Source: Acidimicrobiaceae bacterium (GTDB lineage Bacteria; Actinomycetota; Acidimicrobiia; Acidimicrobiales; Aldehydirespiratoraceae). From it: 64,000 nucleotides of DNA. How positions within the stretch are numbered: position 1 is the first letter of the stretch; every line of letters starts with the position of its first letter. Below, one piece after another: positions 2,815-62,165 of this stretch. The notes beneath the pieces are model-generated. The model had not been told where the DNA came from. It searched no databases and worked only from the letters and a program-made list of their open reading frames with translations. A program made the position numbers and the translations under genes. The stretch lies in NCBI GenBank assembly GCA_026706815.1, contig JAPOYA010000057.1, positions 1 to 64,000 on the forward strand, written 5' to 3'.

Positions 2815-3276
2815 GTGAGGAAACTTGTGCTTGTACCATTGGCCGCGATTATCCTCGCGAGCGTACTCGCAGTCGTACCAGTTAGCACTAGCGGAGTGCC
2901 AGTGTTGTCAAGCCTGGAGGCCCAACCAGCCGACGCACACGATCCGCTGATGACGATCCCTATACCGCGCACAGTATGCAGGGACGTATACAAGAAGGTA
3001 ATAGTCGGGTCCTACCATCCCCTAGGACCGAGCCGACCAGCTCAGTACATCTATGGCTACCGTTGGGTTGAGGAATGCGGTACGGAGCACTTCTACATCA
3101 CCATTGTTCACCCCCACTCGCACGGCTTCCGAGAAGAATGCACGTGGATGACCGTAGCCGCCAACGTCGCAACATTAGGTCTAATTGTTCGCATGTTGGG
3201 GAATAGCGCACTAGTTTGGGTGTGTCAGAATGTCCCAGATGTCCAATACGAAATAATCGAGCCTTGGCGTTACTAA
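2815..3276 (+). CDS. Cassette secreted protein, copy 1 (four-Cys, P-H-x-H)
   Basis: About 153 residues from a GTG start. A hydrophobic signal segment ends QPADA, which gives an A-x-A cleavage site and a mature protein beginning HDP. The mature part has a VC near residue 55, the stretch VIVGSYHPLG, an EC, the motif VHPHSHG, an ECT and a late VC. The same order (VC, VIVG, C, RPHMHV, VCT, VC) occurs in the 57458 protein, so the two are distant paralogues. Sequence just upstream stays open and encodes RAGVAKRDTAL, which is part of the N-terminus of the 57458 protein. The 5' end here has therefore probably been truncated and restarted. I recognise no described family. Confidence 0.7.
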   Translation: MRKLVLVPLAAIILASVLAVVPVSTSGVPVLSSLEAQPADAHDPLMTIPIPRTVCRDVYKKVIVGSYHPLGPSRPAQYIYGYRWVEECGTEHFYITIVHPHSHGFREECTWMTVAANVATLGLIVRMLGNSALVWVCQNVPDVQYEIIEPWRY

Positions 3277-3303: not shown

Positions 3304-3558
3304 ATGATAATCACTAAGATTATGAGGGGCAGGATTTTCACACTGCTCAATACTCGAGCTTTGTGGCCGTATGACATACCCATTGGGATTGCTGTATTTG
3401 CGCTGCTTTGGATGTACAGCCCGGCTTGGCTCACAGTCACGCTCTTTATCGTGGGCTGCGTTGTCCTTGCGACCCGGATCATCGTTGTGCTTGCCGCCCA
3501 GGCCCTGGGCCGTCGCCTAGCGGAGCGGCATGCGGAGCCTGAACCGGTGACCGAATAA
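3304..3558 (+). CDS. Cassette small membrane protein, copy 1
   Basis: 84 residues with two predicted helices, around IPIGIAVFALLWMYS and TVTLFIVGCVVLATRIIVVLA, and a short basic/acidic tail ending EPVTE. It starts 28 bases after the secreted-protein gene, on the same strand, with AGGAAAGG a few bases before the ATG. By position it is equivalent to the small membrane proteins at 58092 and 60056, but direct sequence similarity to them is weak. Its function is unknown. It probably anchors or assists the secreted partner. Confidence 0.55.
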   Translation: MIITKIMRGRIFTLLNTRALWPYDIPIGIAVFALLWMYSPAWLTVTLFIVGCVVLATRIIVVLAAQALGRRLAERHAEPEPVTE

Positions 3559-3590: not shown

Positions 3591-3734
3591 ATCACCTACA
3601 TTGAGGTGCTTTCGGAGCATGATGAAGCTCACGCAGCGGGTAACGACGACCACGCTGACATAGACGACGACGTATTAGTTGCCAAGATCGACCTAGTTGC
3701 TGCTATTGAGGCAACCACTCAGGCTTGTGGATGA
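3591..3734 (+). pseudogene. Cassette lipoprotein remnant, copy 1 (N-terminus lost)
   Basis: This open stretch without a start codon ends with TGA at 3732-3734 and reads SEHDEAHAAGNDDHADIDDD followed by a tail ending AAIEATTQACG. The intact lipoprotein at 58312 ends EEHATAHTADADHSEVE and AAESTRRACQ, with the same His/Asp-rich block and the same spacing to a terminal Cys. The signal peptide and lipobox are absent here. It is the third member of the cassette in the same gene order as at 57458-58614. Confidence 0.6.
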
Positions 3735-5198: not shown

Positions 5199-5422
5199 CA
5201 GGACTTTCTTGAAATTGGTAGCTAGATCACATTTCTATCAGGTTGCTATTTCCGGCCAGTATTGGTGGGCCAGAACCCACCTGGTGCATCCAAAACCCCA
5301 CATTTTTGTACGATCTACGGCTCCATGGCCGCAATTGTAGCGCTTTGAGATACGCTTCGACGACCAGACACGTCTAATCTGTGGTCCGTCGTCTTTGCGT
5401 TAGCGAGTGGTTTGTTTGTGTT

Positions 5423-5510
5423 GGGTGGCGGACTCCATCGGTGGTTGCGACATATCGGCCATGATTGGCCGGTTGAACAAGTCAGCAACCGATCCGATGG
5501 TGGGTTTGGC
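5423..5510 (+). repeat. Displaced copy of the IS30 right end
   Basis: This stretch is roughly 85% identical, by eye, to the reverse complement of about 4735-4822. It includes the terminal repeat and the first codons of the transposase (MIGRLNKSATDP here, VVGRLNESAADP there). It is inverted relative to the intact right end. Similarity stops near 5510. Confidence 0.75.
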
Positions 5511-6090
5511 TTGTGGTGACAGTGACGGGGTTGCCGAGGACGAGGGTACTTCGTTGGTTGCGCTTGAAGCGAGTGCCGCCGCGGCTGAGGCTTTGGAGAG
5601 TGCTGAGCAGCATCAGATTGCCGAGGCTGTCTACTACCACGACGTGAGCGAAGCGTTTCAACAAGTAGCCGCGGCTGCTGATCGGGGCGACGCGGCTGAG
5701 GCTGCGGATCTGTATCGCAAAGCAACCTGGCATGCGATCGCTGCGACCAGCGGCTCGAGTTTGGTAGAGGCCGTCGCGGACTATCCGGTTCCAGCAAGCC
5801 TGACCGATCCCTCATGTGTGGAGTTTGCGCATTATCATCCGGAGACCTCTTGTCATGTTCATTCCACGCGTCCTGCATGTCAGCCCATTCATGCGTTGAT
5901 CTATCGGGTACATGACCCCGACGAAGAAACAGGCCACCGATACAGCACGGTAGATGCCTGCCCGACCCCTCAAGACGCCGCTGGTGTCATCAGAGGCGCC
6001 AGCGTCGCGGTGCTGGCCTGGCAACAAGCAGCCAGCACTGCCAACGCTGCTGCCGAAGCCTGGGAAGCGTTCTCTCAAACAAACCAGTAG
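5461..6090 (+). CDS. Hypothetical Ala-rich protein with IS30-derived N-terminus
   Basis: About 209 residues from an ATG at 5461 (the frame is open from 5407). The first dozen codons come from the IS30 end. After CGDSD the sequence becomes an Ala/Glu-rich helical region (LEASAAAAEALESAEQ, AAAADRGDAAEAADLYRKAT), then a Cys/His-containing middle part (VEFAHYHPETSCHVHS, RPACQPIHALIYRVHD), then another helical Ala-rich end. No family is recognised. The native start was probably lost, so this may be a 5'-truncated gene read through from IS sequence. The true start may instead be the ATG at 5497. Confidence 0.45.
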   Translation: MIGRLNKSATDPMVGLACGDSDGVAEDEGTSLVALEASAAAAEALESAEQHQIAEAVYYHDVSEAFQQVAAAADRGDAAEAADLYRKATWHAIAATSGSSLVEAVADYPVPASLTDPSCVEFAHYHPETSCHVHSTRPACQPIHALIYRVHDPDEETGHRYSTVDACPTPQDAAGVIRGASVAVLAWQQAASTANAAAEAWEAFSQTNQ

Positions 6091-55867: not shown

Positions 55868-56953
55868 ATGTCGATTGGCTCAGCTTCAGCCCTGAATCAT
55901 GGGGGACCTGTCATGGTTGCCATGTCGGGCGGGGTTGATTCCTCGGTCGCGGCCGCTCTGCTGTTGGAGGCCGGCTACGAGGTGGTGGGCGTCACCATGA
56001 AACTGTGGGGCGGGCCGAGTGACACGGGTTGTTGTGCAGTTTCCGATGTTGATGACGCTCGCCGCGTCGCCGACCGACTCGGCGTCGAGCACCATGTGTT
56101 CAATTTCGGTGACGACTTCGAACGCGATGTGGTCGGCCCGTATGTGGCGGACCACGCGGCGGGCCGGACCCCGAATCCATGCATCGAGTGCAATCGGCAC
56201 CTGAAGTTCGATCGTCTGCTGCGCCGTGCCGACGCGCTCGGCTTCTCGATGATCGCCACCGGACACCATGCTCGTGTTGTCGCTACGGTCGATGGGCCGC
56301 GAATCGGCAGAGGTGCCGATATTGCCAAGGATCAGTCCTACGTGCTGCACATGCTCGACGAGGCTGTGCTGAGGCGTCTGCTGTTTCCGCTTGGACACAT
56401 GACCAAGGCCGAGGTGCGCAGGATTGCTGCCGAGTTGGCTCTGCGCACCGCGGCGAAGCCTGAGAGTCAGGATGTCTGCTTCATCACCAACCAGCATGGT
56501 CGGGAGGCGTTCCTCGGTGATCGGATCGGACTCAAACCAGGGGTTGTGGTTGATCGAGCGGGTGCGACGGTCGGCCGGGTGGATTCGGTCGAACTGGTGA
56601 CGGTCGGCCAGCGCAAGGGCCTGGGTCTCGCCGGAGGCGCCGATCCGCATTACGTGATCGACGTGGACCCGAAGTCGTCGACGGTCACCGTGGGGACAGC
56701 TGAGGACCGGCTGGTTGAGGTGACCCCACTCGAATCGTGGGTGTGGACCGGTGAAGCTGTCAGCGGCGACGTGGAGTTGCAGTGTTCGGCGCATGGCAAG
56801 CCCGCTAGTGGCGAAGTTGTCAACGGATTCGTGAGGTGGCGCGGCGAGCATCGCAGGATCGCCCCGGGTCAGAGCGTCGTCGCCTACCGCGGTGACCTGG
56901 TGATCGGCGGAGGCATAGCCGCCCGCGCCGCTCACGCGGCCTTGCCTCAGTAG
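55868..56953 (+). CDS. mnmA: tRNA-specific 2-thiouridylase
   Basis: 361 residues from ATG 55868. It adds sulfur to U34 of tRNAs for Lys, Glu and Gln using ATP and sulfur from IscS. The PP-loop is AMSGGVDSSVAA near residue 18. The first catalytic Cys is in TPNPCIECNRHLKFD (Cys105) and the second in KPESQDVCFITN. A C-terminal beta domain ends ARAAHAALPQ. The last 35 bases form part of a 130-bp direct repeat shared with 58878-59008, so the gene end is the attachment point of the island that follows. Confidence 0.93.
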   Translation: MSIGSASALNHGGPVMVAMSGGVDSSVAAALLLEAGYEVVGVTMKLWGGPSDTGCCAVSDVDDARRVADRLGVEHHVFNFGDDFERDVVGPYVADHAAGRTPNPCIECNRHLKFDRLLRRADALGFSMIATGHHARVVATVDGPRIGRGADIAKDQSYVLHMLDEAVLRRLLFPLGHMTKAEVRRIAAELALRTAAKPESQDVCFITNQHGREAFLGDRIGLKPGVVVDRAGATVGRVDSVELVTVGQRKGLGLAGGADPHYVIDVDPKSSTVTVGTAEDRLVEVTPLESWVWTGEAVSGDVELQCSAHGKPASGEVVNGFVRWRGEHRRIAPGQSVVAYRGDLVIGGGIAARAAHAALPQ

Positions 56954-57048
56954 TGCTGGGTCTTGAGGTATTGTCCCGCGGGCGTGTCCGACGCTGAGAG
57001 GTGTTCGGTGTAGCGGACAGCGGTTGCGGGGATTTCCAGCGTCCTGCT
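56919..57048. repeat. Direct repeat A: mnmA 3' end plus integrase tail (att-like)
   Basis: 130 bases that recur as 131 bases at 58878-59008. By eye only two differences are seen: A/G next to the mnmA stop (CTCAGTAG versus CTCGGTAG) and one G missing in a G-run near 57028. The first 35 bases are the end of mnmA. The rest is the antisense of the integrase C-terminus. Confidence 0.9.
56947..57048 (-). pseudogene. Tyrosine recombinase C-terminal remnant, copy 2
   Basis: On the minus strand this encodes the last ~33 codons of the same integrase as at 58891, ending QYLKTQHY with a stop at 56947-56949 that lies inside the mnmA coding region. A one-base deletion in the G-run breaks the frame before the GRWKSP motif, and everything upstream of 57048 is unrelated. 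Confidence 0.8.
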
Positions 57049-57402
57049 AACACATGAATAGTACATGACGAATAACTGCCGTTATTCGTAACGTAGCTTC
57101 GGGGCTGTTGTCAAGTCTTTGTTGGTCTCGTTGCTGCCGCGTGCCCGGTCCTATCTCGTCGATTGCTCGGTTTACCTGGACAGATAGCGGGCGAATCAGA
57201 ACCGGGTTCTTCAGGAGCGAGCACTCAGCAGTCGTGATCAACGAGATCTAGGAGCACATCGAATCTCCCTCCGGGTGATTGAAAACCAGCGGTTGCGGGT
57301 CACCCGTGGGTATGAAGCGGCCGCGTTGACGCTCACCTAAAACCCATTCCGAGCAGAGGTTTCGTACTGCGTGTCCTTGCGGTCCGGTGTCTCGGCGCTG
57401 GG
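57049..57402. other. Gene-free stretch inside the mobile island
   Basis: About 350 bases between the integrase remnant and the cassette. A 64-codon minus-strand frame exists (57047-57241), but it lacks motifs, a ribosome-binding site and typical codon use, and I do not accept it. No RNA gene is seen. The promoter of the cassette probably lies in the right-hand part. Confidence 0.5.
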
Positions 57403-57444
57403 GTTCTAGGTGACGGATAACGGCAGATATCCGTCACCTAGAAC
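57403..57444. promoter_or_regulatory. Perfect 17-bp inverted repeat before the cassette
   Basis: GTTCTAGGTGACGGATA (57403-57419) and its exact reverse complement (57428-57444) flank an eight-base loop. The right arm runs into the ribosome-binding site AGGAG at 57445-57449. It could be a dimeric operator or an mRNA hairpin controlling translation of the secreted-protein gene. Confidence 0.65.
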
Positions 57445-57457
57445 AGGAGAGCCAACT

Positions 57458-58045
57458 ATGAAACAGCCCCGTGCCACCAAGATCGTCGGCCGGCATCGAA
57501 GAGCAGGCGTCGCTAAACGCGACACAGCCCTTGCGAGGAGACTTGCAATCCTGCCATTGGCCGCGATCGCAGCGTTGACCCTTGCGAGCGGAGCGGTGCT
57601 TGGCGACGCACTGGCAAACCCCGAGCCCGCTAGCGCCCACGGAGTCATGAAGCGTGTTGGTAGGCCCCAGAGAGTCTGCACAGCGGAAACGAGGCAAGTG
57701 CAGGTAATCGTTGGCTACGAGGGAGTGGGTCGGCTGCGTCGACCCGTCTACGCATGGGAGGCGCAGACCCGCGAATTCTGCGAGTGGAAGAACGTCGTCT
57801 CGTACGTTCCACGTCCGCACATGCACGTCAGCGACGAGGTTTGCACCTACGTCGAAGTCTTCATGGTGGGTTCTGGTGCCTACTATGGTGGTAAAGCTGG
57901 TGCAGCCGCGGGCGCGGGTTCAGGCGGCTCGGCGCCTGGTGCTGTTGCGGGTGGTGCCGTTGGCGCCGGACTAGGGGCCTCGGGAGGGTACTGGGTTAGT
58001 CAGCGAGTCTGCAATTGGATTCCGTCGGTCATCTGGTTGGGGTAA
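57458..58045 (+). CDS. Cassette secreted protein, copy 2 (four-Cys, P-H-x-H)
   Basis: 195 residues from ATG 57458, with AGGAG eight bases upstream. A long basic n-region (RHRRAGVAKRDTALARRLA) leads into the hydrophobic ILPLAAIAALTLASGAVLG. The cleavage site is EPASA, leaving a mature N-terminus HGV. The mature part has VC, QVIVGYEGVGRLRRPVY, FC, the motif YVPRPHMHVSDEVCTYV, then a Gly/Ala-rich helix (GGKAGAAAGAGSGGSAPGA) and a final VCNWIPSVIWLG. The Cys positions, VIVG and P-H-x-H match the 2815 protein. The Gly-rich segment is unique to this copy. Exported. Function unknown. Confidence 0.8.
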   Translation: MKQPRATKIVGRHRRAGVAKRDTALARRLAILPLAAIAALTLASGAVLGDALANPEPASAHGVMKRVGRPQRVCTAETRQVQVIVGYEGVGRLRRPVYAWEAQTREFCEWKNVVSYVPRPHMHVSDEVCTYVEVFMVGSGAYYGGKAGAAAGAGSGGSAPGAVAGGAVGAGLGASGGYWVSQRVCNWIPSVIWLG

Positions 58046-58070: not shown

Positions 58071-58091
58071 ATGGAGAAAGAGGGATTTGTT

Positions 58092-58349
58092 ATGAGGTAT
58101 TTCAATACGAATCTGGTGAGCGTGTATCGGGGACACCCGATAGCGATGCATGTTGGATTTGTTGCTGCGTCCGTGACCGGTGGCGTGGTATCTGCGCTGT
58201 TGTTTCACTCCGGCGGTTACACGATGTCCGCCGCCGTGGGCAGAGGCGTCGCGGTTGCGGCGGTTACCTACGCTTTGTTTCTGACTCATCGTTGGGTTGG
58301 GGCGCGCCTAGATGCTAAGCGGTCGGGTGATCCGAAACACGTTCGCTGA
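58092..58349 (+). CDS. Cassette small membrane protein, copy 2
   Basis: 85 residues from ATG 58092, with GGAGAAAGAGGG upstream. The first helix is MHVGFVAASVTGGVVSALLF and the second AAVGRGVAVAAVTYALFLTH, with FHSGGYTMS between them and a basic tail. The protein at 60056 shares VTGGVVSALLFH and GGYTMSAAVG or DGYTMSAAVG, so the two are recent paralogues. It overlaps the lipoprotein gene downstream by 38 bases, which suggests co-translation. Confidence 0.7.
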   Translation: MRYFNTNLVSVYRGHPIAMHVGFVAASVTGGVVSALLFHSGGYTMSAAVGRGVAVAAVTYALFLTHRWVGARLDAKRSGDPKHVR

Positions 58350-58614
58350 CCAATGCCGCCAATTAGGGTCGGTGTGCGCGGTGTTGGTGTTGTCGGGTCT
58401 GCTGGCTGGGTGCGGCGGTGGTGCAAACGCTGATGCGTGCCGCGCCGCCGCGACTGCGCAAGCAGAGGCAGAGGCGGCTTGGGGTTCAGTTATCGAGGAG
58501 CACGCCACCGCTCACACAGCCGACGCTGACCATTCTGAGGTGGAGACGCGTTTGTTGTCTGGACGCGTTGATGTGATCATCGCTGCTGAGTCCACACGGA
58601 GGGCGTGCCAATAG
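58312..58614 (+). CDS. Cassette small lipoprotein (His/Asp/Ala-rich)
   Basis: 100 residues. VCAVLVLSGLLAGCGGGANA is a signal peptide with the lipobox LAGC, so the mature protein begins at Cys34 and is lipid-anchored outside the cytoplasmic membrane. The mature part is a short helix (ACRAAATAQAEAEAAWGSVI), a His/Asp segment (EEHATAHTADADHSEVE) and a terminal Cys near the end (RRACQ). Related remnants lie at 3591-3734 and 60329-60413. Third gene of the cassette. Function unknown. Confidence 0.7.
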   Translation: MLSGRVIRNTFADQCRQLGSVCAVLVLSGLLAGCGGGANADACRAAATAQAEAEAAWGSVIEEHATAHTADADHSEVETRLLSGRVDVIIAAESTRRACQ

Positions 58615-58877: not shown

Positions 58878-59008
58878 CCGCCCGCGCCGCTCACGCGGCC
58901 TTGCCTCGGTAGTGCTGGGTCTTGAGGTATTGTCCCGCGGGCGTGTCCGACGCTGAGAGGTGTTCGGTGTAGCGGACAGCGGTTGCGGGGGATTTCCAGC
59001 GTCCTGCT
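58878..59008. repeat. Direct repeat B: mnmA 3' end plus integrase tail (att-like)
   Basis: Second copy of the repeat at 56919-57048. Its first 35 bases reproduce the end of mnmA (coding ARAAHAALPR and a stop) although no mnmA gene precedes them, so this is a displaced attachment site. The remaining bases are the integrase C-terminus, here in continuous frame. Confidence 0.9.
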
Positions 59009-59280
59009 TGCATCAGACCGTGCGTGGGTACACCTGCGGCGGCAAGGTCTTGGGCCATGCCCAAGCGGGGTGAATGGCTGGTGATGTTGGCGGGGTCGAG
59101 TCCGGCAGCTTGCCGGGTTGGGGCCCGGGAGCGAGCTGTGTCGGTTGCTGACCGCGGCGAGGTAGGTGCCAATGGTGGTGGGTTTCTTTTTCTGGCGGAT
59201 CATCGTGATCAGCCAAGCCTGGAGGTGCCCGGGGTCTGCGGGCAAATCTGGATGGCCGTTGTCAGAGGCCCACTTGTTTC
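58891..59280 (-). pseudogene. Tyrosine recombinase (integrase) with internal deletion, copy 3
   Basis: Two parts are joined out of frame near 59145. The N-terminal part (59140-59280) reads LPADPGHLQAWLITMIRQKK and PTTIGTYLAAVSNRH, a core-binding domain. The C-terminal part reads GLDPANITSHSPRLGMAQDL, with the HxxR box, then LMQAGRWKSP, AVRYTEHL and YLKTQHYRGKAA, ending at a TGA at 58891-58893. About 100 codons with the first catalytic Arg are missing. The stop lies within the mnmA-derived part of repeat B, so in the intact element the integrase gene overlapped its own attachment site. Confidence 0.85.
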
Positions 59281-59312
59281 CATGGGATATGTGTGTTGGT
59301 ATACTGTGAAGT
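59274..59312 (+). promoter_or_regulatory. Candidate leaderless promoter of the toxin-antitoxin operon
   Basis: TATACT at 59300-59305 is seven bases before the antitoxin ATG at 59313, and TTGTTT at 59274-59279 could act as a -35. There is no Shine-Dalgarno sequence in between, so transcription probably starts at the ATG and the mRNA is leaderless, which is common in actinobacteria. Confidence 0.5.
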
Positions 59313-59534
59313 ATGGCTGCAACGACTACCATCAAGGTCTCTGTCCGGACTAGGGATGCCTTGCGTCAGCTTGCGGATAGAGAAGGGCGGACTTTCGGCG
59401 CCCAACTCGACAAGATGATCCAAAGGGAGCGACGCCGCATCCTCGGGGCTCAACTTGCGAGCGCCCCCCTCGAAGTTGACGACCATGTCGTGCTCGATGC
59501 GTCAGCAAGCGATGTAGCCCATGCGAGCCGGTGA
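59313..59534 (+). CDS. MazE-like ribbon-helix-helix antitoxin
   Basis: 73 residues. TTTIKVSVRTRDALRQLADR then GRTFGAQLDKMIQRERRR form a ribbon-helix-helix DNA-binding unit, and the C-terminal part (LEVDDHVVLDAS) would bind the toxin. The toxin gene overlaps by 14 bases. The pair is cargo of the second element in the mnmA island and would favour its retention. Confidence 0.78.
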   Translation: MAATTTIKVSVRTRDALRQLADREGRTFGAQLDKMIQRERRRILGAQLASAPLEVDDHVVLDASASDVAHASR

Positions 59535-59835
59535 CGTCGTCCGCTGCGACTTCGGCACTCCGGCTAGGGGGGAGCCTGGATTTGTCAGGTCGGCGGTCGT
59601 TGTCACCTCCGACGACGTTCTTGAGTTCCGCCAGCATGCCGTTCTGGTCGTTCCCTGTACGGCCAATGATCGAGATTGGTTGAGCGAGGTAGAGGTGTCG
59701 GGGTTCGGAGTCGCACAAGCGCACCTGCCGACAACCGTCAGCGCCGACCGTGTAGTCGAAACCACCGGCACGAACATAGGAGTGGTTGCGCTGACGCAGA
59801 TCCGCGAAGTCATCGCCGATCTGCTCGGACTCTGA
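59521..59835 (+). CDS. mazF: MazF/PemK-family endoribonuclease toxin
   Basis: 104 residues. GDVVRCDFGTPARGEPGFVR is the MazF opening with its conserved Gly-Asp-Val and Arg. SAVVVTSDDV, VVPCTANDRDW and VALTQIREVIADLLGL follow in family order, with the catalytic Thr in PCTAN. It cleaves single-stranded RNA when released from the antitoxin. Start ATG 59521, inside the antitoxin gene. Confidence 0.85.
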   Translation: MRAGDVVRCDFGTPARGEPGFVRSAVVVTSDDVLEFRQHAVLVVPCTANDRDWLSEVEVSGFGVAQAHLPTTVSADRVVETTGTNIGVVALTQIREVIADLLGL

Positions 59836-59995
59836 ACGGAGCCTGAGTCCACAACGAACAAGCGCTAGATGCGCATGAAGCGTCTGGACTTGCATCACCC
59901 CCTACGGACAACTATCTGGACAGTGTCCGTGGACTCCCCAACCCCCTCCTGGTGGGATCTTGCCGGCTTTCTTGACGTCGAGGCGCCAACTCGCC

Positions 59996-60025
59996 TGGAT
60001 TCCGTCGGTCATATGGCTGGGATAA
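59996..60025 (+). pseudogene. Cassette secreted-protein 3' remnant, copy 3
   Basis: The last nine codons and stop, WIPSVIWLG, are identical to the end of the 57458 protein and sit in the same position relative to the following membrane-protein gene. Nothing upstream to 59836 resembles the rest of the gene, so it was removed by deletion or by toxin-antitoxin insertion. Confidence 0.75.
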
Positions 60026-60055
60026 GGTCAGGGGAATAAGGAGAAGGGTATTGCT

Positions 60056-60328
60056 GTGAGGTATTTTGTCTCAATGCTTGCGAGCTTGTATAGGGCCCAA
60101 CCGGTGCTTATGTTCGTTGGGGCCGTAACCGGTGGCGTGGTATCTGCGCTGTTGTTTCACTTTGACGGTTACACGATGTCCGCTGCGGTGGGGATGGGTG
60201 CGGCGGTGGCGGTGCTCACGTACGCTGGCAATCTAGCTGTCCGTTGGGCGGCGGAACGTCTCACTGCTAGTGGGGCAGTTGGTAGCGCCGCTGACAATGC
60301 GGCTTCGCTGACTGACGATGCTGGTTAG
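60056..60328 (+). CDS. Cassette small membrane protein, copy 3
   Basis: 90 residues from GTG, with AAGGAGAAGG upstream. Helix one, LMFVGAVTGGVVSALLFHF, and helix two, AAVGMGAAVAVLTYAGNLA, match the 58092 protein closely. The C-terminal tail is longer and Ala/Asp-rich (SGAVGSAADNAASLTDDAG). It looks intact even though both cassette neighbours are broken, so it may still be expressed. Confidence 0.65.
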   Translation: MRYFVSMLASLYRAQPVLMFVGAVTGGVVSALLFHFDGYTMSAAVGMGAAVAVLTYAGNLAVRWAAERLTASGAVGSAADNAASLTDDAG

Positions 60329-60413
60329 GTCGGTGCGCGCGGTGTTGGCGTTGTCGGGTCTGCTGGCTGGCTGGGTGCGGCGGCGACGCTGACCATTCTG
60401 AACTGGAGACGAG
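60329..60413 (+). pseudogene. Cassette lipoprotein remnant, copy 3
   Basis: The bases encoding the signal peptide (ALSGLLAG) are present, but a four-base GCTG insertion breaks the lipobox and about 110 bases are deleted before CGACGCTGACCATTCTGA, which matches the His/Asp segment of the 58312 gene. The remnant ends where the NCS2 permease gene begins at 60414, marking the right edge of the island. Confidence 0.75.
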
Positions 60414-62165
60414 TCAATCGGCTTTGATGTGGACCGTCACGATGTCGAGGTCGTGGTACTGCTGGTGGAAGACCTCCGAAGCGTGGTGTTGCAGCATCCG
60501 CAAGGAGATGTCTCGTTCGAGCGGCAGTCCCGTGTTCTGCGAGGCGAGCACCGAGAGCCGATCCTCGAGGTTCTCCTCGTTCGCTGCCGCGACGAACTCG
60601 AGCACGGCATGTCCGTCCTGTCTGCCGGCTGTCAGGCGCAGCGTGCGTCGGACATCCTTATCAGAACCATCCGTGGACTCGTCACTGTCGAGCAGTGTGA
60701 GCAGAGTCTCCTCGGCGACCGCGTCGAGCCGATGCGCCATGGCCTCCTCCCAACGGTTTCGATTCGAGAAGTCCTTGAGGAACTCGCGGATGCGGGGTAG
60801 TTCGGACACCGACAGCTGCGAACGGAAGCGTTTGCGCCTAGAACCCGTAAGTTCGGTGAACAGGGTCAGCGCAATCGCGGTGAGACCACCCGTGGTCATG
60901 CCGTTCTCGAAGAAACCGCCGGCGAACCCCTCAAGATATTCGGGGAAGATCTCTCCGCCCTGGAAACCGACCCCGATCCAGAACGAAACACCGGCGATCA
61001 GGCTCTTGCGGTAGTCGTTGGCGTCCTCGACCACCATCCTCATGCCGACCACGAACAGCAGAGCCAACAGCACGGTTATGTAAGCGGCGACCACCGCGTC
61101 GGGTATTGCGAGCACCAGCGCCAACACCTTGGGAAGGAAGGCCATCAGCACGAACGAAATGCCGATGGCCACACCGACGCGGCGGGCGGCGACACCGGTC
61201 AACTCGGTGATGGAGATGCTGGTTGAATACGTCGTGTTCGGCATCGTGCCCGCGATCCCCGACAGCAAGTTGCCGGTGCCGTCGGCGGCCACGGCGCCCT
61301 GTACTGATCGATAGTCAACGGCACGGGGTCGACGCCACGACACCCGTTGAATCGCCACCGAGTCGCCGATCGTCTCGACCGCGCCGATCAGCGTGACGAA
61401 CACGAAGGCGGGCAGCAGGCTCCAGAAGTCGCCGCCGAAGCCGAAGTCGTACCCGGGCCAGCCGCCGTCGGGCAGGCCGATCCATGACGCGTCGGCCACT
61501 TGGCCGGTGTCGTAGAGCCCTAACATCGCAGCCACCACCGATCCGGCTGCGATGCCGATGACCGGTGCCCACAGACGCATGCTGCGGGTGGCCGTCAGCG
61601 CGATGACGATGATCACGCCCATTGCGGCAAGGGCACTTGCCGGTGCGCTCCACGATGACTTGCCCTCAGGCGAAACTGTCACCATGTCGAAAACGAGGGG
61701 CATCACCGTCACCGCGATGAGCATGACCACGGTGCCCGCCACGGTGGGGGTGAGCAAGCGGCGGAAGATCGACAGCTTTGCCGCCAGGAGGAACTGGAAC
61801 AGCGATGAGGCTATGACCAGCGTGGCGAGCAGGCCTGGTCCGCCCTTTTGAAGTGCAGTGACGCAGACCGCGATGAACGCGCCGGACGTGCCCATGAGAA
61901 GGACGTAGCCCGAACCGATGCGGCCGACGCGCACAGCTTGCAGAATCGTGCTGATACCGCTGATCGCCGCGGCGGCGAACACCGCCCATGCCAAGTACTC
62001 GTCGGTGCCTCCGGCGGCTCTGATCACGATGGCAGGGGTGAGTACGATTCCGGCGATAGCCAATATGGCGAACTGCAACCCGAGACCGGCAGTGAGCGCA
62101 ACCGGTGGCTTGTCGTCGGCTTCGTAGCGGATGTTCCGCTGAGCTTTGGATACTTCGTTCTGCAT
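60414..62165 (-). CDS. NCS2-family purine/pyrimidine permease with cytoplasmic C-terminal domain
   Basis: 583 residues. The first ~440 residues are a nucleobase-cation symporter: LTAGLGLQFAILAIAGIVLTPAIV, LLMGTSGAFIAV, FVTLIGAVETIGDSVAIQRVS and GTGNLLSGIAGTMPNTTYS (Q/E substrate motif and GxxxP-type segment). The C-terminal ~140 residues are soluble: ELPRIREFLKDFSNRNRWEE, AMAHRLDAVAEETLLTLLD, HAVLEFVAAANEENLEDRL and a final HDLDIVTVHIKAD. The helix-strand order resembles a GHKL/RsbW-like ATPase domain, although the Asn of the N-box is not evident. Typical NCS2 permeases end near residue 450. Confidence 0.85.
   Translation of the reverse strand: MQNEVSKAQRNIRYEADDKPPVALTAGLGLQFAILAIAGIVLTPAIVIRAAGGTDEYLAWAVFAAAAISGISTILQAVRVGRIGSGYVLLMGTSGAFIAVCVTALQKGGPGLLATLVIASSLFQFLLAAKLSIFRRLLTPTVAGTVVMLIAVTVMPLVFDMVTVSPEGKSSWSAPASALAAMGVIIVIALTATRSMRLWAPVIGIAAGSVVAAMLGLYDTGQVADASWIGLPDGGWPGYDFGFGGDFWSLLPAFVFVTLIGAVETIGDSVAIQRVSWRRPRAVDYRSVQGAVAADGTGNLLSGIAGTMPNTTYSTSISITELTGVAARRVGVAIGISFVLMAFLPKVLALVLAIPDAVVAAYITVLLALLFVVGMRMVVEDANDYRKSLIAGVSFWIGVGFQGGEIFPEYLEGFAGGFFENGMTTGGLTAIALTLFTELTGSRRKRFRSQLSVSELPRIREFLKDFSNRNRWEEAMAHRLDAVAEETLLTLLDSDESTDGSDKDVRRTLRLTAGRQDGHAVLEFVAAANEENLEDRLSVLASQNTGLPLERDISLRMLQHHASEVFHQQYHDLDIVTVHIKAD

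What the first reader, a model, noticed from the sequence alone, without database searches (positions are those of the whole stretch)
57458..58045. Secreted cassette proteins mature to an N-terminal His and share a P-H-x-H motif and four cysteines
Both secreted proteins have an A-x-A cleavage site directly followed by His (ADA-HDP at 2815, ASA-HGV at 57458). Both carry HPHSH or RPHMH in the same place between the second and third conserved Cys. An N-terminal His plus a second His pair is how CopC-type and His-brace copper proteins hold copper. Nothing else in these sequences resembles CopC or polysaccharide monooxygenases, so this would be a new scaffold if true. The partner lipoprotein is also His/Asp-rich.
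Basis: inference. Interest (0 to 1): 0.75.

Follow-up and report, generated by a model that had tools for sequence, protein, structure and literature searches.

The report
N-terminal-histidine secreted metal-protein family
A sponge-associated actinobacterium carries a multi-copy, previously unnamed family of small secreted proteins whose first residue after export (His, sometimes Asp) appears to pair with a later His-x-His motif to hold a metal ion, encoded with a small membrane protein and a histidine-rich lipoprotein.

Summary
I found 32 family members (13 in this genome; others in congeners and two other families of the order). At a conserved A-x-A cleavage site the first mature residue is His (24) or Asp (8) and nothing else, while positions +2 to +5 vary. 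An H-x-H follows the second Cys in 28 of 31 full-length members; the Pro is not conserved. Across 27 members the distance residue 1 to Cys1 tracks the distance Cys2 to H-x-H (3-16 residues, r = 0.97), as expected if an antiparallel hairpin pinned by a Cys1-Cys2 bond puts residue 1 opposite H-x-H. Low-confidence AlphaFold2 models show that hairpin. No Pfam, NCBIfam, PADLOC or PDB match explains the family. Most copies sit in a three-gene module: secreted protein, two-helix membrane protein, lipoprotein with conserved HxxxH. I judge it a new scaffold for an N-terminal-His/Asp metal site with the ligand set of PmoB CuB. The metal, its identity and the role (metal handling or effector) are unmeasured. 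Upstream of three copies, including the window's, lies an inverted pair of recombinase-like sites (a candidate invertible promoter).

The parts
57458..58045 (+). Copy B: secreted protein, 195 aa, no family name
   Evidence: ORF; homologues; no significant family hit
57458..57637 (+). Signal peptide of B, ending in A-S-A
   Evidence: -3 = A/V and -1 = A in 32/32 members
57638..57640 (+). His1 of mature B (predicted metal ligand: amino group and side chain)
   Evidence: H or D in 32/32 members
57677..57679 (+). Cys1 (mature residue 14)
   Evidence: invariant
57779..57781 (+). Cys2 (mature residue 48), predicted cross-strand partner of Cys1
   Evidence: strands 4-28 and 35-58 in the model
57818..57826 (+). 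H-x-H (mature 61-63), predicted ligands
57842..57844 (+). Cys3 (mature 69)
57854..57998 (+). Gly/Ala-rich hydrophobic (glycine-zipper-like) segment between Cys3 and Cys4
   Evidence: PF13488 below cut-off, E 0.0085
58010..58012 (+). Cys4 (mature 125)
58071..58349 (+). Second gene of the module: two-TM protein
   Evidence: hydropathy and conserved position
58312..58614 (+). Third gene: lipoprotein with HxxxH...DH loop and two further Cys
   Evidence: alignments A2, A4
57068..57089 (-). Outer palindromic site of candidate inverton
57413..57434 (+). Inner palindromic site of candidate inverton, inverted relative to the outer one, just upstream of the B start codon
56922..57048 (-). Tyrosine recombinase 3'-end remnant beside the outer site
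   Evidence: 98% identical to the copy at 58881 onwards
2815..3276 (+). Copy A: secreted protein; His1 at 2938-2940, HPHSH at 3109-3123
3304..3558 (+). Two-TM protein of copy A
3594..3731 (+). Truncated lipoprotein of copy A (HDEAH...DDH kept, lipobox lost)
   Evidence: E 5.4e-9
59985..60420 (+). Remnant of another B-like module: C-terminal tail of a secreted gene, intact two-TM gene (60056-60328), truncated lipoprotein start
   Evidence: sequence read by eye

Best explanation
These are small exported metalloproteins of a new family. Signal peptidase exposes His1 (or Asp1). The free amino group and side chain of residue 1 together with the two imidazoles of H-x-H form one metal site (most likely Cu(II); Zn or Ni possible) at the open end of a beta-hairpin pinned by a Cys1-Cys2 disulphide. 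The Gly/Ala-rich segment between Cys3 and Cys4 anchors the protein in or on the membrane. With the two-TM protein and a lipoprotein bearing an HxxxH loop it forms a small envelope complex that captures a metal ion outside the cell and passes it between the two histidine sites. Shown: conservation, spacing covariation, gene module. Inferred: disulphide, metal, membrane anchoring, relay.
For: Residue 1 is only H or D in 32 members while +2 to +5 vary. H-x-H is kept in 28 of 31 full-length members. d1 (residue 1 to Cys1) and d2 (Cys2 to first H of H-x-H) correlate at r = 0.97 in 27 members, and at 0.97 in 19 representatives below 50% identity (none of 100,000 permutations as good); the control d1 versus Cys1-Cys2 spacing gives 0.32. 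A member found after the rule was formulated, L099, fits it (D1, d1 = d2 = 5). AF2 models show strand 1 followed by strand 2 with limits that put Cys1 opposite Cys2 and the N-terminus beside H-x-H. Lipoprotein HxxxH in 19 of 22, and one of the three exceptions (L090) also lacks H-x-H. Precedent: N-terminal-His proteins of diverse folds bind Cu2+ or Ni2+ (PMC12537917), and PmoB CuB uses the N-terminal amine and side chain of His33 with His137 and His139 (PMC12576850).
Against: No metal measurement. pTM 0.27/0.34 from 3-4 sequences, so the models are weak. L096 (H1 kept, H-x-H lost) and L090 show the motif can be lost without losing His1. No copper transporter, oxidase or regulator was identified beside the copies examined, and CopC is absent from the genome. 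Thirteen copies, poorly conserved two-TM partners and a candidate phase switch are unusual for housekeeping metal uptake.
Confidence: 0.55

Rival explanations
1. An effector-immunity module: the glycine-zipper secreted protein disrupts membranes of competitors, the two-TM protein and/or lipoprotein give immunity; the His site is a metal-dependent folding or assembly element.
For: Gly-zipper-like segment, two-TM partner, many divergent copies per genome, candidate invertible promoter. Caulobacter CdzC/CdzD are small glycine-zipper toxins with a small TM immunity protein (PMC5380434).
Against: Cdz proteins use type I secretion, these have cleaved signal peptides; no defence profile hits; the conserved His sites in both secreted protein and lipoprotein are unexplained by it.
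Confidence: 0.22
2. A structural zinc (or other metal) site in a surface or matrix protein; metal stabilises the fold and has no trafficking role.
For: Small disulphide-rich proteins often need such stabilisation (own knowledge); invertons are often found near cell-surface genes (PMC11892184).
Against: An exposed N-terminal chelate is the usual design for an open, exchangeable or catalytic site; the lipoprotein also carries an HxxxH.
Confidence: 0.13
3. No metal: His1 and H-x-H are conserved for protein-protein contact, for signal-peptidase processing, or only through common descent of paralogues.
For: Members are paralogues from few genomes; His1 can be Asp.
Against: Everything except H1/D1, H-x-H and the Cys has diverged to 25-40% identity in most pairs; the spacing covariation ties residue 1 to H-x-H.
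Confidence: 0.1

Closest known systems
PmoB/AmoB CuB site (particulate methane and ammonia monooxygenase)
   Same: Same predicted ligand set: N-terminal amine and side chain of His1 plus H-x-H (His33, His137, His139; PMC12576850)
   Different: No Pfam hit to it; small Cys-rich hairpin instead of cupredoxin domains; no PmoA/PmoC neighbours seen
CopC / histidine-brace copper carriers
   Same: Exported, N-terminal His plus later ligand(s)
   Different: No CopC profile hit in the proteins or genome; four Cys; no CopD neighbour seen
DUF4198, DUF6702, Ang-1 and Ang-2 (signal-strapping families, PMC12537917)
   Same: Secreted N-terminal-His metalloproteins, metal capture at the membrane proposed; authors expect Asp as an alternative
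   Different: No sequence hit; DUF4198 and Ang-1 structures are beta-sandwiches, and Ang domains are fused to a HupE/UreJ permease
Cdz contact-dependent glycine-zipper bacteriocins
   Same: Small secreted glycine-zipper proteins with a small TM partner (PMC5380434)
   Different: Signal peptide instead of type I secretion; conserved His site; extra lipoprotein

Membership tests
[quoted passage not shown]
   24 of 32 members including both window copies; Asp in 8. Cleavage inferred from the -3/-1 pattern, not from SignalP
Histidine-brace type N-terminal-His metal site (a kind of site, not a homologous family) | A further internal His placed next to residue 1 | tested here: inconclusive
   H-x-H in 28 of 31; spacing covariation r = 0.97 and hairpin in low-confidence models support it; no reliable structure
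Histidine-brace type N-terminal-His metal site (a kind of site, not a homologous family) | Binds Cu (or Ni) through amine and imidazoles | not testable with these tools
   needs purified protein
CopC (PF04234) | CopC profile match | tested here: not met
   no hit in 14 members at E <= 1; none in the genome
PmoB/AmoB | Profile match or PDB sequence match | tested here: not met
   Pfam scan of 14 members, none at E <= 1; no PDB sequence hit
LPMO families | Sequence profile match | tested here: not met
   no Pfam hit
LPMO families | Immunoglobulin-like fold | tested here: inconclusive
   no fold match at E <= 0.001, but the models are weak
Cdz-type glycine-zipper bacteriocin | Type I secretion with an RTX-like secretion signal | tested here: not met
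   signal peptide with A-x-A site instead; no transporter gene noted in the loci read
Cdz-type glycine-zipper bacteriocin | Kills cells lacking the immunity gene | not testable with these tools
   needs experiment

The most novel reading that the evidence does not exclude
A multi-copy, recombinase-switched family of secreted metalloproteins in which a minimal disulphide-pinned hairpin holds Cu through residue 1 (His or Asp interchangeable) and H-x-H, the hairpin arm length being free to vary while the register is kept, working as a metal-armed surface effector or metal-capture complex with a two-helix protein and a His-loop lipoprotein.
Probability: 0.3. Interest if true: 0.8.

Novelty: new variant of a known kind. 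Interest (0 to 1): 0.62.

Why it matters
It would add a new and very small scaffold to the short list of proteins that bind metal through a processed N-terminal His, with the ligand set of PmoB CuB. The natural His/Asp alternation at position 1 and the sliding arm length give a ready test of what such a site needs. The three-gene module, its many copies in a sponge-associated lineage and its candidate phase switch point to an unstudied envelope system.

Tried and rejected
CopC as an explanation: absent. Pfam, NCBIfam, PHROGs, PADLOC: only weak glycine-zipper or chance-level hits. PDB by sequence: none; by fold: none significant. Viral contigs, phages and plasmids: no homologues. Copies without H-x-H (L025, L090, L096) and the truncated L005 were kept as counter-examples. 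A sigma-70 consensus scan of 56900-57500 found no promoter, so the outward TTGACA is only inferred. The invertible segment has the same orientation in all three loci, so inversion itself is not shown.

Full report
What is there. Copy B (57458-58045) encodes a 195-aa protein with signal peptide ...EPASA and mature start HGV; copy A (2815-3276) reads ...QPADA|HDP. Both have four Cys and an H-x-H between Cys2 and Cys3.

How far it extends. Searches with the protein and then with profiles found 32 distinct members: 13 in this genome, others in four of five congeners examined, and sporadic ones in two other families of the same order. Samples of 296-345 genomes of the class and phylum gave no convincing member outside the order (two weak class-level hits, E 0.001-0.008, had interrupted frames). 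Related loci carry titles of Acidimicrobiaceae/Acidimicrobiia MAGs; that these come from sponges is my inference from isolate names. No homologue in viral contigs, phages or plasmids.

Conservation. In nine full-length members the invariant columns are A(-1), H1, Cys1, Cys2, both His of H-x-H, Cys3, one Gly and Cys4. With all 32, residue -1 is always Ala, -3 Ala or Val, and residue +1 is His (24) or Asp (8); entropy is 0.81 bits at +1 and about 3 bits at +2 to +5. Conserved -3/-1 with a freer -2 is the mark of a signal peptidase site. H-x-H is present in 28 of 31 full-length members; L025 (Asp1), L090 and L096 lack it, L005 is truncated. The Pro before it is not conserved.

Do residue 1 and H-x-H meet? 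The key test used sequence only. The N-terminal arm varies (residue 1 to Cys1: 3 to 16 residues). H-x-H lies 3-13 residues after Cys2, and the two distances follow each other: 13/13, 11/11, 7/8, 5/5, 3/4 (r = 0.97 in 27 members; r = 0.97 and mean difference 0.68 in 19 representatives below 50% identity; 0 of 100,000 permutations as good). The control, arm length against Cys1-Cys2 spacing, gives 0.32. In an antiparallel hairpin joined by Cys1-Cys2 this keeps residue 1 opposite H-x-H. The largest departures are L004 and L010 (16/13) and L007 (15/13), which would need a bulge. The representatives fall into a few arm-length groups, so the permutation value overstates independence; but L099, found later, obeys the rule. 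AlphaFold2 with 3 and 4 sequences gave strands 4-28/35-58 for B and 12-36/44-68 for the L081 protein, with block pLDDT in the eighties there but pTM 0.27 and 0.34.

The module. Most copies are followed directly by a gene for a two-TM protein (22 of the 29 members tabulated, my count) and then a lipoprotein. Many short-arm copies share a two-TM type with motifs RSxRE before TM1 and GRxRFPL after TM2. The lipoprotein has Cys near both ends of its mature part and a conserved HxxxH followed by a D/E-H loop.

What it most likely does. Shown: export signal, conserved residue 1, H-x-H, Cys pattern, spacing covariation, gene module. Inferred: Cys1-Cys2 disulphide, metal binding, membrane anchoring by the Gly/Ala-rich segment, and a relay to the lipoprotein. 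Copper is preferred because free N-terminal His plus internal His sites are mostly copper sites (own knowledge) and because PmoB CuB has this ligand set (PMC12576850); N-terminal-His proteins of other folds bind Cu or Ni, and the same authors expect Asp to serve too (PMC12537917). The main rival is an effector-immunity module, because of the glycine zipper, the two-TM partner, the copy number and the possible phase switch (PMC5380434).

Membership. By arrangement it would work like a histidine-brace protein, but it is not a member of CopC, PmoB, an LPMO family or any profile family tested.

Regulation. Upstream of B lie two 22-bp palindromic sites in opposite orientation, 345 bp apart, the only such pair in the window; equivalent pairs lie upstream of L002 and L005, and the asymmetric centres agree within a locus but differ between loci (CGGCAG in B and L005, CGGCGA in L002). 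Tyrosine recombinase sequence adjoins in L005 and, as a remnant, in the window. A TTGACA at the same place in all three points away from the secreted gene and would point towards it after inversion, though a consensus scan does not call a promoter and no inverted orientation was observed. Other copies with enough upstream sequence do not have such a pair. This is a lead, not a result.

Copy A looks partly decayed: its lipoprotein gene lacks the lipobox part and its 5' flank joins a recombinase remnant, so B is the better copy for bench work.

Noticed in passing
57068-57089, 57413-57434; L002 2140-2161 and 2477-2498; L005 444-465 and 786-807: Inverted pairs of palindromic recombinase-like sites about 340 bp apart just upstream of three copies; candidate invertible promoter.
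   Followed up: partly
2560-2740, 56922-57048, 58881-59335; L005 879-1917: Remnants of a tyrosine recombinase gene beside copies A, B and L005.
   Followed up: partly
L006 and L024 upstream of the secreted gene: Leader hairpins with different stem sequences inside the same frame, TTTGCATCAA...TTGATGC, just before the gene.
   Followed up: no
L003, L007, L020, L025, L049, L061: Several contigs end within about 50-300 bp of the secreted gene, as if repeats or rearrangements broke the assemblies there.
   Followed up: no
59985-60420: Remnant of another B-like module with an intact two-TM gene.
   Followed up: no
59314-59835: Antitoxin-like and MazF/PemK-like toxin gene pair beside the module (by eye).
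   Followed up: no
5407-6090: Protein with a His/Cys-rich stretch CVEFAHYHPETSCHVHSTRPAC; not aligned with the family.
   Followed up: no
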